Assembly: GCF_000744775.1 (NCBI RefSeq)
Contig: NZ_JQMP01000001.1
Location: forward strand, 248,001 to 312,000
Reading direction: 5' to 3'
From: Thermorudis peleae
GTDB lineage: Bacteria > Chloroflexota > Chloroflexia > Thermomicrobiales > Thermomicrobiaceae
DNA length: 64,000 nucleotides
Shown here: piece after piece, positions 6,256 to 39,528 of the stretch
How positions within the stretch are numbered: the first letter of the stretch is position 1
Layout: each line of letters begins with the position of its first letter
Position numbers and translations under genes: made by a program
Notes under the pieces: model-generated
What the model was told of the DNA's origin: nothing
What the model saw: the letters and a program-made list of their open reading frames with translations, nothing else
The model's database searches: none

Positions 6256-7100
6256 CTCCTGGCACTCCATTGCTACGGTTTGAGCACGTGCAGTATGCCT
6301 ATGGTGATGTGCCAGCGCTGTTGGACGTTTCCCTGGAGATTACGGCTGGGGAACGCGTTGCGGTTATCGGCCCAAATGGCTCGGGAAAGACCACGCTTGC
6401 CAAGCTCAGCAACGGGTTATTACGTCCGCACGCAGGACGTGTTATCGTTGCTGGCCATGACACGAGTGGACGTGCCCCGGGAGAACTTGCCCGTATCGTC
6501 GGCTATGTCTTCCAAAATCCCGATCATCAGCTCTTTCAACCGACTGTCGAGCAGGAAATTGCCTTTGGCCCGCGCACGCTCGGCCTCTCGCCTTCGGCTG
6601 TCGCCAAGCGTGTAGAGGCAATGCTCGCCCTGTTCAGCTTAACACCCTATCGCCGGCAGCATCCGACCCTCTTGCGTCGAGGTCTCCGTCAACTGATCGC
6701 CCTCGCTGCTGTCTATGCACTCGACCCGGCTGTGCTTGTGCTTGATGAAGCGCTCAGTGCGCTCGACGTGCCACAAGCGATGCACGTGCTAGGCATGCTA
6801 GAGCGTGACTGCCACCAAGGGCGGAGCATTGTGCTGATCACCCATGACTTACAGTTGGCCGCCTGGGCCGAGCGTGTTGTGCTCATCGAACACGGGCGCA
6901 TTCTGGCTGATGGCCCAGCCCGTGCGATACTCGGCGATGCTGCTTTGTTGGAACGTGCCGGGCTCGATCCGCTGCCCGCAACGACACTTGCCGATCGACT
7001 CCTCCATCGACGGGGCGTGCTTTCTCCTCATGAACTCATTGCCCTGCTGAGCCAGGCACGGGTTGCGACAAAAACGGACGATGCCAATGGCCCACGCTGA
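6240..7100 (+). CDS. ecfA2: ECF transporter ATPase A2 with degenerate signature motif
   Basis: This is the second ECF ATPase, 286 residues, with a GTG start inside the previous gene. The Walker A GPNGSGKTT, the Q-loop VFQNPDHQLFQPTVEQEIAFGP and the H-loop ITHDLQL are intact. The signature LSGGQ is absent: the region reads LLRRGLRQLIALA before the Walker B VLVLDEALSALD, where Pro after DE is also lost. In an A1-A2 heterodimer the missing signature and the missing A1 switch His belong to the same composite nucleotide site. Identity as an ECF ATPase is firm, and reduced function at that one site is inferred. Confidence 0.92.
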   Translation: MVGDVAPGTPLLRFEHVQYAYGDVPALLDVSLEITAGERVAVIGPNGSGKTTLAKLSNGLLRPHAGRVIVAGHDTSGRAPGELARIVGYVFQNPDHQLFQPTVEQEIAFGPRTLGLSPSAVAKRVEAMLALFSLTPYRRQHPTLLRRGLRQLIALAAVYALDPAVLVLDEALSALDVPQAMHVLGMLERDCHQGRSIVLITHDLQLAAWAERVVLIEHGRILADGPARAILGDAALLERAGLDPLPATTLADRLLHRRGVLSPHELIALLSQARVATKTDDANGPR

Positions 7101-7896
7101 TCTTTTTGTCCCTGGTCGCTCTGCGCTCCATCGTCTTGATCCACGAGTCAAGTTTGTGCTTGCCCTCCTCACGGGTGCACTCGTGTTGAGCTGGGATAGC
7201 GTACTGCTCCTTGCTGCCTTCCTGGTGTTGACGCAGCTTGTCCTCTGGCACATCCGCTATCCACGAGCAACAGTGCTGGCGTTCTGGCGTGCGCTCCGGC
7301 CGTTCCTCCTCCTGATCGTGTTGCTGTGGCCAGTTTTTCATCCTGGTGGCTCGCCAGTGTTGGTGACCGCTGGCCCAGTGCACATCACGCTACCAGCGCT
7401 CTTCGCTGGCGTGAGTGCGGCCCTGCGTGTTGCGTCTACGGCATTCATCGCCCTCCTCTGGCTGGGGACAACTGATCAACGAGCTCTTGTGCGAGGCTTT
7501 GTTCGCCTGGGGATGCCCTTCAGCCTTGGCATTGCCTTAACGATCGGCTTACGCTTTATCCCACTCTTTGCTGCCATTGTCGAGCAGGTTTCTGCCGCCA
7601 TGCAATCGCGGGGACTGATCCTGCCACCACGTGGCTGGCGACGTCTGCGAGCGCTTGTTCCCATTCTCATTGCAGCCCTGATCACGAGCCTCCGATATAG
7701 CGAGCAACTCGGCTGGGCGCTCGCGCTCCGCGGCGTTGGGGCGTCGCGCCAACGAACCGCGCTGCGTGACCTCACGATGCGCTGGCAGGACTGGGTAGCC
7801 TTGCTCGCTGGCGGCTCGCTTCTCGTTGGGCTGCTCCTCGCACGTGTTGTCTGGGGAGTTGGCGGTGCGCTGCTTGCGCCACTCTCGCCACGGTAA
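7081..7896 (+). CDS. ecfT: ECF transporter transmembrane component T
   Basis: This scaffold membrane protein couples the S protein to the ATPases. It has about 271 residues and begins AHADLFVPGRSALHRLDPRVKFVLAL, the usual EcfT start. Several hydrophobic helices follow. Two coupling motifs correspond to the family's paired ARG helices: AMQSRGLILP and LALRGVGASR. The ATG at 7081 overlaps the end of A2; an in-frame TTG at 7063 and an ATG at 7087 are alternatives. It ends the operon: the next gene starts 62 bp later and belongs to another pathway. Confidence 0.9.
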   Translation: MPMAHADLFVPGRSALHRLDPRVKFVLALLTGALVLSWDSVLLLAAFLVLTQLVLWHIRYPRATVLAFWRALRPFLLLIVLLWPVFHPGGSPVLVTAGPVHITLPALFAGVSAALRVASTAFIALLWLGTTDQRALVRGFVRLGMPFSLGIALTIGLRFIPLFAAIVEQVSAAMQSRGLILPPRGWRRLRALVPILIAALITSLRYSEQLGWALALRGVGASRQRTALRDLTMRWQDWVALLAGGSLLVGLLLARVVWGVGGALLAPLSPR

Positions 7897-35922: not shown

Positions 35923-36371
35923 CCTGCCCCGCCCGAGCGCGGCTGTTCCGGCCTGTTCGTTCAGCTCCGCCCAGGCATACGGCACTCCGTCGCCGTGGCA
36001 TACCTGTTCGGCCGCCATCACAACAGCGGCGGGCAGCCGCCCGGGCGCACGCGCCCCAGCTCCACTCACCCTGGCCGCTCGCTCACGGACACCCCCGCAC
36101 GAGCACCACCGGCCAACGCCGGGGGCATCCCGCACGCCATCGCCCACGGGACGCCTCCAGGTCGCCGCGGCCGGAGCACACACCACACCGCCGTCACACG
36201 CCAGCAGACTGCAGTCGGCTGCAGCGGGCTGCCCCGCCGGTTCGCAGCGACCGCCCCAGCCCCGGGCGCACGCGCCCACGCCCGGCTGTCGCGCCCAGCA
36301 CGCGCCCCCACGCCCCACGCCCGCCCCCACTCCTCGGCTCCGCCGCACCACCCCCTCTCGTTCCATTCAGC

Positions 36372-36421
36372 ATGTTATGTCAAAACATTAGCTTGCATTC
36401 CCCTCGAACACCTGCTACACT
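36372..36421 (+). promoter_or_regulatory. Promoter and imperfect palindrome of the primase-helicase gene
   Basis: TTGCAT (36393-36398) and TACACT (36416-36421) are 17 bp apart. They lie in a short AT-rich island in otherwise C-rich DNA. The inverted repeat ATGTT (36372-36376) / AACAT (36384-36388) sits just upstream of the -35 box and may be an operator. The start codon is 185 bp downstream. The remainder of 35707-36606 holds no gene I can support. Confidence 0.55.
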
Positions 36422-36606
36422 CCGAACAGGAACGGGAAGCCGGTGGGGACACCCGGGGAACAACCTCTCCCTTCCCACGACCACCCCGCAGCCCGCTTCC
36501 CGTCCCCTCCGGCACCATCCCACCCCGCGCCCCGGCCGGAGTCGCCGTGCAGCAGAAGGGGCCGAGCGCGCCCCAGCTCGGCCCCCACCACGAAAGGATC
36601 CCGGGA

Positions 36607-39528
36607 ATGCCCCCCGGTTCCCCTTCAGTATACGCCACCACCGCTCCCCTGGCAGCCCCCCTCCTCGCCGCCCTGACCTGCCCCAACCCCCGCTGCCCCT
36701 GCCACCGCACCGCCCAGCGCGGCTCCGGCCGCACCCACTGCCCCGCCCACGACGACCAGCACCCCAGCCTCAGCCTCTCCCTCCAGGGCGACCACCTGCT
36801 CGTGCACTGCCACGCCGGCTGCCCCCAGACCGCCGTCCTCGCCGCCCTGCGCGCCCGCGGCCTCTGGCCCGCCACCCCCGTCACCCCCACCAGGCCAGGC
36901 AGCCGTGCTGCCAGCGGTGTGGCCAGTGCCCCGGCTGCGCCGGCGGAGGGCAGCCGTGCTGCCCGCACGAGCAGCGCGGCTACCCACACAGGGAGCAGCG
37001 CTCCGGCTGCGCCGGCCGAGCAGGAGGCTGGCGTGGTCACCCGCTACCTGGTGCGTGATGCCACCGGCCAGCTCGTCGCCGTCCACTGCCGCCGCGACAC
37101 TCCCACCGGCAAGCGCCTCTGGTGGGAAACCCCCGACGGCGCCCCCGGCCTCGCCGGCCGCCCCACCACCGCCCTCCCCCTCTACGGCATCGACCAGCTC
37201 GGCCCCAGCCCCATCGCCATCGTCTGCGAGGGCGAAAAGGCCACCGACGCCCTCCGCCAGCACGGCCTGCCCGCCGTCGGCACCGTCACCGGCGCCAGCG
37301 CCACCCCCAGCGACGCCGCCCTCGTCCCCCTCCGCGACCGCACCGTCTACCTCTGGCCCGACCACGACCCCGTCGGCCACGACCACATGGCCCGCATCGC
37401 CGCCCGGCTCCACGCCCTCGGCTGCTCCGCCATCCGGCAGATCCGCTGGCCCGACGCCCCGCCCGGCGGGGATGCCGCCGACTACCTGGCCGCAGGACAC
37501 ACCCGTGCCGACGTGGAACAGCTGCTCGCCACCGCCGCGCCCTGGCCGCTGCCGGATCCCACAGTTGAGCCGAACGAGCAGTCTGTTCCGCCAATCCCAC
37601 CGACCATCACCGCCGACGAGCTCCTCGCCCGCGACTTCCCCGAACCACGCTGGATCGTGCCCGGCCTGCTGCCCGAAGGCCTCACCATCCTGGCCGGACG
37701 CCCCAAGCTCGGCAAAAGCTGGCTCGCGCTCGACCTTGCGCTGGCCGTCGCCACCGGCGGCCGCGCCCTCGGCACCGTGCCCGTCGAGGCCGGCACCGTC
37801 CTCTACCTCGCGCTCGAAGACACGCCACGCCGGCTCAAAGACCGCATGAGCTGGCTCCTGCCCGAATGGCAACCCGGCATGCTCCAGCGCCTCGCCCTCG
37901 AAACCCACTGGCCGCGGCTCGACGACGGCGGACTGGAACTGCTGGCCGCCTGGCTCGCCGTCCACCCCGACTGCCGGCTCGTCGTCATCGACACGCTCAA
38001 ACGGATCCGCCCGCGCGAACGAATGCGCCAGGCGCTCTACGACGTCGATTACGAGGCGCTGCAGCCACTGGCTGAGCTCGCCGCCAGCCGTGGCCTGGCT
38101 GTTCTGGTCGTCCACCACACCCGCAAAGCCGACGCCGACGACCCGCTCGACCTGGTGAGCGGCACAACTGGCCTGACCGGCGCCGCCGATGCCGTACTGG
38201 TGCTCCAGCGTTCGCGCGGCTCAGCCGAGGCGACGCTGATGGCGACCGGCCGCGACCTGGAAGACGGAGAACATGCGTTACAGTTCCGGGCTGGGCACTG
38301 GCAACTCATGAAGTCGGCCAACGAACTCTCGGCGCCAGCCCAGTCGCCCGAACGCCGCGCCGTGCTCGAGTTGCTGCACCAGCACGGGCCGATGACCGCG
38401 AGCGAGCTCGCCCGCGCCCGCGGGACATCGCTCCAGGCTGCGTGGAAGCTCCTGCAGAAGCTCGCCGCGGAAGGCATCGTCCAGGCCGACGCCAACGGAG
38501 CGTACGCCATCCCGAGTTCAACCCCAAAACACGCACATCGTGCACAGGTGGTTGAGTCGGTTGAGTACCGGCAAAAACCGCATGACGACGCGGAAATCCA
38601 CTCAACCACCTTGACCCAGCACCGGTTGAGTGGGTTGAGTGACGCACCACTGTCCCCCTCTCAGCCCGCTGCTCCACACCACTTACACCACTCGCACTCA
38701 ACCAACTCAACCACTCAACCGCACTCAACCACTCAACCGCACTCAACCACTCAACCGCTCAACCAACTCAACCACTGTCAACCACTATCACCGATGTCAG
38801 TTACGTCAACCGACGCACCCGCATCACCCGCGTCAACCGCGTCGAGCACTGCGACGCGCACGCCATCGGTTCCATCACCCGCGCCCGCCCACGCACCCGA
38901 TGCGCCCCACCGCACCAGCGCACTCGCCCGGTCACGGGCAACCGAGCCACCGGCGTCACCCGCATCCCCCACCAGCACGCCGCCTGCTCCGTCACGATCG
39001 CCGGACCACGAGGACGCCCCCGCTCCGCCGGCAACCGCGCAGGCAGCTGACAGTGGTGCAGGACAGACAGGCCAGCCAGCGGCAGGCTGGGCGCGCGAAG
39101 CTGAGGCAGTGGACGAAGCGTGTGCGGCTCAGAGTATCGAGACAAAAGAGAGGAACGATACTGCTCAATCGCATTCTTTAAGCGGAATACAGTACAGCGA
39201 CAGCTTTGCACGAGCCGAACGCTACTTTGTTGACCCACGCGACGACTCGCCCGACGACGCTGCGCTCTGGGAGCAGCTCTTCCGGCTGGCCTACGAGCTG
39301 GACGGGGGCGTCCCCGGCTCCTCCGAGCTGGTCGGCACGCTGCGCGGCATGCGGGCGGTCGGGGCACGGTTGGAGCGGGCCGGGCCAAGCTACCGCATCG
39401 TGCCGGGCCCAGACCTGGATCCAGCGGAGTTCGCCCATTTGCGCCGGCAGTGGCTCGACCCGCGCCGTGCCCGCATCGCCCGGCTGCTCGCCAAGCTGCC
39501 CCTCTCGCCTTCCCCGCCGGCTGCCTGA
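36607..39528 (+). CDS. Large primase-helicase replication protein (zinc finger, TOPRIM, RepA-like ATPase)
   Basis: This 973-residue protein has a primase-type zinc module (Cys25, Cys30, Cys45/His48, HCHAGC 67-72). A TOPRIM-like domain follows (AIVCEGEKATDAL near 204, WPDHD near 250). Next is a RepA/AAA_25-type ATPase (Walker A GRPKLGKS near 362-369, Walker B LVVIDTLKRI, VLVVHHTRK). After it comes a winged-helix-like segment (PMTASELARARGTSLQAAWK, near 595). A long Ser/Thr/Pro/Ala-rich region (about 640-850) and a small charged C-terminal domain end the chain. Such proteins replicate plasmids, phages and integrative elements. No integrase or relaxase is near. The ATG at 36607 directly precedes the zinc module. 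Codon use is extremely rich in C endings. The coding sequence itself carries an iteron-like array. Confidence 0.82.
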   Translation: MPPGSPSVYATTAPLAAPLLAALTCPNPRCPCHRTAQRGSGRTHCPAHDDQHPSLSLSLQGDHLLVHCHAGCPQTAVLAALRARGLWPATPVTPTRPGSRAASGVASAPAAPAEGSRAARTSSAATHTGSSAPAAPAEQEAGVVTRYLVRDATGQLVAVHCRRDTPTGKRLWWETPDGAPGLAGRPTTALPLYGIDQLGPSPIAIVCEGEKATDALRQHGLPAVGTVTGASATPSDAALVPLRDRTVYLWPDHDPVGHDHMARIAARLHALGCSAIRQIRWPDAPPGGDAADYLAAGHTRADVEQLLATAAPWPLPDPTVEPNEQSVPPIPPTITADELLARDFPEPRWIVPGLLPEGLTILAGRPKLGKSWLALDLALAVATGGRALGTVPVEAGTVLYLALEDTPRRLKDRMSWLLPEWQPGMLQRLALETHWPRLDDGGLELLAAWLAVHPDCRLVVIDTLKRIRPRERMRQALYDVDYEALQPLAELAASRGLAVLVVHHTRKADADDPLDLVSGTTGLTGAADAVLVLQRSRGSAEATLMATGRDLEDGEHALQFRAGHWQLMKSANELSAPAQSPERRAVLELLHQHGPMTASELARARGTSLQAAWKLLQKLAAEGIVQADANGAYAIPSSTPKHAHRAQVVESVEYRQKPHDDAEIHSTTLTQHRLSGLSDAPLSPSQPAAPHHLHHSHSTNSTTQPHSTTQPHSTTQPLNQLNHCQPLSPMSVTSTDAPASPASTASSTATRTPSVPSPAPAHAPDAPHRTSALARSRATEPPASPASPTSTPPAPSRSPDHEDAPAPPATAQAADSGAGQTGQPAAGWAREAEAVDEACAAQSIETKERNDTAQSHSLSGIQYSDSFARAERYFVDPRDDSPDDAALWEQLFRLAYELDGGVPGSSELVGTLRGMRAVGARLERAGPSYRIVPGPDLDPAEFAHLRRQWLDPRRARIARLLAKLPLSPSPPAA
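38550..38773. repeat. Iteron-like array of ACTCAACC / GGTTGAGT inside the primase-helicase gene
   Basis: Inverted-orientation copies GGTTGAGT lie at 38550, 38559, 38624 and 38633. The forward ACTCAACC lies at 38600, then eight exact copies at 38696, 38705, 38713, 38723, 38731, 38741, 38749 and 38766, with a one-mismatch copy at 38757. Spacing in the dense block is 8-10 bp. The two orientations encode unrelated peptides (Val-Glu-Ser-Val-Glu, Leu-Ser-Gly-Leu-Ser, and Ser-Thr-Thr-Gln-Pro repeats), so a DNA-level signal is more likely than a protein repeat. The arrangement suggests an origin of replication within the initiator gene. Confidence 0.7.

What the first reader, a model, noticed from the sequence alone, without database searches (positions are those of the whole stretch)
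38550..38773. Dense iteron-like array inside a primase-helicase gene
Thirteen exact copies of the octamer ACTCAACC or its complement (four GGTTGAGT, nine ACTCAACC), plus one single-mismatch copy, occur within about 225 bp of the gene. Eight exact forward copies and the variant are packed at 8-10 bp spacing. The complementary orientations encode different peptides, so protein-level selection does not explain them. The array lies just after a winged-helix-like segment of the same protein. Phage lambda O is the known case of an origin placed inside an initiator gene; a similar arrangement here, in a primase-helicase, would be new for this lineage.
Basis: partly seen in the sequence, partly recalled or inferred. 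Interest (0 to 1): 0.75.

Follow-up and report, generated by a model that had tools for sequence, protein, structure and literature searches.

The report
Replication-origin repeats inside a primase-helicase gene
A dense cluster of an 8-letter DNA word sits inside the gene of a primase-helicase, and relatives of this gene in many bacteria, plasmids and viruses carry a cluster of a different word at the same place, so it is most likely the landing site (replication origin) of the protein that the gene encodes; this is a widespread variant of a known arrangement rather than something wholly new.

Summary
All 13 exact ACTCAACC/GGTTGAGT copies of the 64-kb window lie at 38550-38773 (1.2 expected by chance), in both orientations and all three reading frames, inside an intact TOPRIM primase / RepA-type (AAA_25) helicase / winged-helix gene (ATG 36607-39528).

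Orthologues and paralogues keep the architecture but change the word: CGTCTACC (18 copies) in the closest relative, HR27; CTCCACC in two genomes of another genus; TCTGACGC and GCGGACGG in two paralogues of the same genome. Across 160 AAA_25-winged-helix loci from many phyla and viral contigs, 79 have a 7-mer repeated at least 5 times just after the winged helix, against 6/160 and 7/144 in control stretches; arrays lie inside the ORF, across its stop codon or after it. A true plasmid, pATHE01 of Caldicellulosiruptor bescii, shows the same.

Best reading: an iteron-type, initiator-binding replication origin carried in the 3' part of its own initiator gene (works like P4 alpha, SaPI Rep, SCCmec Cch2, lambda O). 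Binding and origin activity are inferred, not shown, and no mobile element surrounds the gene today.

Odd extra: solitary arrays with no rep gene elsewhere in the chromosome.

The parts
36607..39528 (+). primase-helicase gene (ORF open from 35995; ATG 36607, preceded by a GAAAGGA ribosome-binding-like site, chosen as likely start)
   Evidence: 91% DNA identity to the C4 paralogue over window 36218-37618
36679..36840 (+). putative zinc-finger (CHC2-like) part of the primase
   Evidence: Cys/His pattern in the translation; phrog_6088 and phrog_239 DNA primase(/helicase) matches begin at aa 241-242
37219..37491 (+). TOPRIM domain
   Evidence: Toprim_3 at aa 409-499, E 0.012, below curated cut-off; phrog_239 DNA primase/helicase aa 242-741, E 9.8e-30
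37609..38133 (+). RecA-type helicase domain (AAA_25, RSF1010 RepA-like)
   Evidence: Pfam E 3.8e-34; best sequence match among solved structures is RSF1010 RepA 1g8y, E 3.4e-15
38347..38496 (+). winged helix-turn-helix, presumed array-binding domain
   Evidence: HTH_24 E 5.4e-6; well predicted helices in the model
38550..38566 (.). two GGTTGAGT iterons upstream of the core
38574..38597 (.). conserved core AAAACCGCATGACGACGCGGAAAT, shared by arrays with different iterons
38600..38607 (.). single ACTCAACC iteron after the core
38624..38640 (.). second pair of GGTTGAGT iterons
38696..38773 (.). tight array of eight ACTCAACC iterons plus the GCTCAACC variant (38757-38764)

Best explanation
The array is an initiator-binding (iteron) module, most likely the replication origin of a mobile-element-derived replicon, lying in the 3' linker of the gene for its own initiator. 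Proposed working: the C-terminal winged helix (perhaps with the rest of the helicase) binds the GGTTGAGT/ACTCAACC iterons; this loads hexamers of the RepA/DnaB-like helicase on both sides of the core; the lower-GC core region is opened, and the fused TOPRIM primase starts primers on the exposed strands. Shown here: the array, its DNA-level constraint, and its recurrence at the same position with other words. Inferred: protein binding, origin opening, priming at the core, and any present-day activity.
For: (1) Octamer copies in both orientations and all three frames; inside the core CAT is used in 13/13 His codons and GCG in 16/16 Ala codons, against 5/41 and 33/154 in the gene. (2) The closest orthologue (61% identical; L016/L060, HR27) has 18 copies of CGTCTAC with the same order: forward group, core (diverged), reverse group, forward pair, long reverse run. 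(3) The core with yet other iterons lies in primase-helicase genes of G002, G007 and G001 and of two paralogues here. (4) 79/160 AAA_25-winged-helix loci have at least 5 copies of one 7-mer right after the winged helix, controls 6/160 and 7/144; with the window and pATHE01 added, 44 arrays lie in the ORF, 18 straddle the stop and 19 follow it. (5) Plasmid pATHE01, 8.3 kb, has 11 TTCACTC copies in its AAA_25 rep gene. (6) The window and C4 genes share 91% identical primase DNA, then differ in both helicase and iteron: helicase and array change together. (7) Precedents: SaPI Rep and Cch2 origins directly downstream of the helicase gene, bound by the C-terminal domain (PMC7581432).
Against: No binding or replication data. 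No integrase within 100 kb on the contig, and the flanking genes examined are metabolic or transport genes, so the element may be a relic. Iteron similarity follows helicase-domain similarity at least as well as winged-helix similarity, so the winged helix is not singled out. Arrays also occur with no rep gene. 81 of 160 relatives show no array at this threshold, and the 160 are not independent.
Confidence: 0.8

Rival explanations
1. Low-complexity protein linker: a Ser/Thr/Gln/Pro-rich tail grown by repeat slippage, with no DNA function.
For: The 8-copy tandem part (TRF period 8/18) encodes a repetitive STTQPH peptide, and the orthologue also has an ST-rich linker.
Against: Copies in all three frames and both strands; arrays wholly after the stop codon in 19 of 81 relatives; conserved core with rare codons; the word is replaced in concert in relatives.
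Confidence: 0.06
2. Interspersed mobile repeat (REP/MITE-like) that inserted into linkers of these genes by chance.
For: Array modules without a rep gene at C3:951k, C4:232k and C3:1328-1331k; a 103-bp module 93% identical between the window and C3:951k.
Against: The iteron word differs from gene to gene while the position just after the winged helix is kept across phyla; no mobility genes were recognised beside the window array.
Confidence: 0.06
3. Control element: the array binds the protein for autorepression or copy control (titration), while the true origin lies elsewhere.
For: RA3 uses distant repeats to titrate its initiator (PMC9455977).
Against: In characterised neighbours (SaPI Rep, Cch2) the repeats next to the helicase gene are the origin; the array lies about 2 kb from the promoter end of the gene; the octamer has no second cluster in the window.
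Confidence: 0.08

Closest known systems
Phage P4 alpha protein and ori (summarised in PMC4234260)
   Same: TOPRIM primase, helicase and C-terminal DNA-binding domain in one protein that binds repeats at the origin and then unwinds and primes
   Different: helicase here is RecA/RepA-type (AAA_25), and the array lies inside the coding sequence
SaPI Rep and SCCmec Cch2 (PMC7581432)
   Same: initiator helicase whose C-terminal domain binds iterons placed at the 3' end of its own gene
   Different: their arrays are downstream of the stop codon; the primase is a separate protein
RSF1010 RepA/RepB'/RepC (PMC4234260, PMC4538821)
   Same: closest solved helicase by sequence (1g8y); iterons, helicase and a primase that starts at specific origin sites
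   Different: three separate proteins and an AEP-type primase; origin not inside the gene (recalled)
Lambda O, RepA_N plasmids (pSK41), repABC repC, RA3 repB
   Same: origin inside the initiator gene; in pSK41 the protein stretch encoded by the ori is a dispensable linker (PMC5703833); also PMC3155836, PMC9455977, PMC6022878
   Different: unrelated initiator proteins, no fused helicase or primase
Caldicellulosiruptor bescii plasmid pATHE01 rep gene
   Same: AAA_25-winged-helix gene with an in-frame iteron array (TTCACTC) just after the winged helix
   Different: other N-terminal domain, other iteron and core

Membership tests
Iteron-type replication origin | cluster of short repeated words, far above chance | tested here: met
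Iteron-type replication origin | next to or inside the gene of a replication initiator | tested here: met
   gene has primase, helicase and winged-helix domains; initiator role itself is inferred
Iteron-type replication origin | A+T-rich or easily opened stretch nearby | tested here: inconclusive
   local GC dip to 0.56-0.61 in a 0.70 gene; no truly AT-rich stretch
Iteron-type replication origin | bound by the initiator and drives autonomous replication | not testable with these tools
   needs gel shift and mini-replicon tests
RepA (RSF1010)-like helicase | RecA-type helicase fold with RepA as closest solved relative | tested here: met
   by fold RepA 1nlf has TM 0.57/0.71, but DnaB and RadA chains rank above it by Foldseek E-value
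P4 alpha-type primase-helicase | TOPRIM primase + SF3-type helicase + winged helix in one protein | tested here: not met
   helicase is AAA_25/RecA-type, not SF3
IncQ-type ssi hairpin at the core | stem-loop conserved by compensatory changes | tested here: not met
   core is conserved in sequence; covariation no better than shuffles (415/500), one stem pair mismatched in 12/16
Integrative mobile element (ICE, PICI, prophage) | integrase or transfer genes and attachment sites around the rep gene | tested here: not met
   no PF00589 hit within 100 kb; flanking genes examined are metabolic or transport; no clear flanking direct repeats

The most novel reading that the evidence does not exclude
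The solitary arrays in the chromosome (one of about 1 kb at C3:951k mixes three octamer types, GGTTGAGT, GGTTGAAA and GGTTGACA, each with a core) are kept as ectopic origins: either decoys that titrate the initiators of incoming replicons, as artificial lambda-origin copies do to lambda (PMC4488673), or satellite origins fired in trans by the primase-helicases.
Probability: 0.12. Interest if true: 0.8.

Novelty: new variant of a known kind. Interest (0 to 1): 0.5.

Why it matters
It gives a simple sequence rule (look just after the winged helix of AAA_25 replication helicases) that finds candidate origins of many uncharacterised plasmids, phages and integrated elements across bacterial phyla, and a natural series of helicase-iteron pairs for studying how origin specificity changes. 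The gene overlaps its origin, so protein and DNA constraints meet in one stretch.

Tried and rejected
Rfam scan of the gene region: no hits. Hairpin covariation of the core: not supported. Core linked to the TOPRIM primase, as an ssi site would be: rejected, since distant TOPRIM loci lack it and a PrimPol-type gene here (L233) has a core-like sequence. Winged-helix-specific co-variation with iterons: weak and not separable from overall relatedness. Generic hairpin pattern in viral contigs: 5 hits, one with direct repeats, not clearly related; a class-wide search found one unrelated hit. RepAM of pMEA300 was considered as kin, but RepAM is DUF3631, not AAA_25. DNA similarity to phage records: none. 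A first script for the co-variation test failed on a frame error and was rerun.

Full report
Observation. The octamer ACTCAACC/GGTTGAGT occurs 13 times in the window, all at 38550-38773; shuffles give 1.24 on average and never more than 6. Its order is two forward, core, one reverse, two forward, eight reverse plus one variant. Genome-wide it is not enriched (93 against 92 for the reversed word) except for a second cluster at C3:951.7-952.6k. The carrier ORF (35995-39528, likely start ATG 36607) encodes a zinc-finger/TOPRIM primase, an AAA_25 helicase and a winged helix; the array begins about 50 bp after the winged helix. The AlphaFold model of the helicase-winged-helix part is confident (pLDDT 91); the closest solved relative by sequence is RSF1010 RepA, and by fold DnaB, RadA and RepA chains.

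DNA or protein feature? Copies occur in all three frames and both strands. The core motif CCGCATGACGACGCGGA recurs in 16 aligned places in this and related genomes, with a rare His codon and a minority Ala codon used without exception, and also outside genes. In 19 of 81 relatives the array lies wholly after the stop codon. A pure protein-repeat reading does not fit.

Relatives. In the family and order of the source genome the same layout is found with other words: CGTCTACC in HR27 (L016/L060; 61% identical helicase, core diverged), CTCCACC in G002 and G007, GTGTGACG in G001, TGTAACC at a helicase/polA junction in G016. The genome itself has paralogues with TCTGACGC (C4:225-229k), GCGGACGG (C1:100k) and AAAACCGGACA (C4:414k, 4 kb from an integrase). 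The window gene and the C4 gene share 91% identical primase DNA including about 390 bp upstream of the ATG, and then diverge in both helicase and array, so helicase and array appear to have been exchanged as a unit.

Breadth. A search with the helicase-winged-helix alignment gave 80 loci from named genomes (Actinomycetota, Bacillota, Pseudomonadota, Acidobacteriota and others) and 80 from IMG/VR. In the 630 bp from the winged-helix end 79/160 have a 7-mer present at least five times, against 6/160 upstream and 7/144 farther downstream. Many show a forward block facing a reverse block. The 8.3-kb plasmid pATHE01 is a clear case. The loci are phylogenetically clumped (many Streptomyces and Nonomuraea), so the counts are not independent events.

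Mechanism. SaPI Rep and SCCmec Cch2 bind iterons at the 3' end of their own genes with their C-terminal domains (PMC7581432). P4 alpha and RSF1010 combine repeat binding, unwinding and priming (PMC4234260). Origins inside initiator genes are known in pSK41/RepA_N and pT181 plasmids (PMC5703833), repABC repC (PMC3155836), RA3 repB (PMC9455977) and lambda O (PMC6022878). The present case fits as an initiator-origin overlap in an RSF1010-RepA-type primase-helicase. Shown: array, constraint, recurrence. Inferred: binding, opening, priming. Activity in the present host is doubtful because no mobile-element genes were recognised around the gene.

Limits. Winged-helix identity does not predict the iteron better than helicase identity does. 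The core is conserved as sequence, not demonstrably as a hairpin. Solitary arrays without a rep gene are unexplained: relics, titration sites or decoys.

Noticed in passing
L001:6650-7640 (G000 C3:951.65-952.64k): About 1 kb intergenic array of roughly 70 GGTTGA/TCAACC copies with three octamer variants and several cores, between an MFS-transporter-like and an AMP-ligase-like ORF, with no rep gene.
   Followed up: partly
L009:16536-17266 and L226:3661-4497, 6383-7266: Solitary TCTGACGC arrays; the two on C3 are inverted to each other and flank a predicted secreted-protein ORF.
   Followed up: partly
L045/L227 (G009:C9) and L048 (G000 C3:1331k): A solitary array near the same ABC substrate-binding gene in two genera, about 82% identical DNA but rearranged, so solitary arrays may persist for long.
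   Followed up: partly
L232 (G000 C3:199-202k): A PrimPol-AAA_25-winged-helix gene has a palindromic TTCCCG/CGGGAA array in the linker before the helicase instead of after the winged helix.
   Followed up: partly
L233 (G000 C4:413.5-416k): A PrimPol-AAA_25-winged-helix gene 4 kb from an integrase, with five AAAACCGGACA repeats and core-like sequences.
   Followed up: partly
L051, L054, L055 (IMG/VR), L230 (G051:C389): Short palindrome CCGCATAAC[CT]A[CT]GCGG recurs in unrelated contigs; in L054 it lies among GACCCCA direct repeats near what looks like the 3' end of an integrase gene.
   Followed up: no
window:40903-41023: 15-bp tandem repeat (TGCCACTCGTGGCCG, about 8 copies) about 1.4 kb downstream of the gene, in a GC-rich stretch without recognisable domains.
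   Followed up: no
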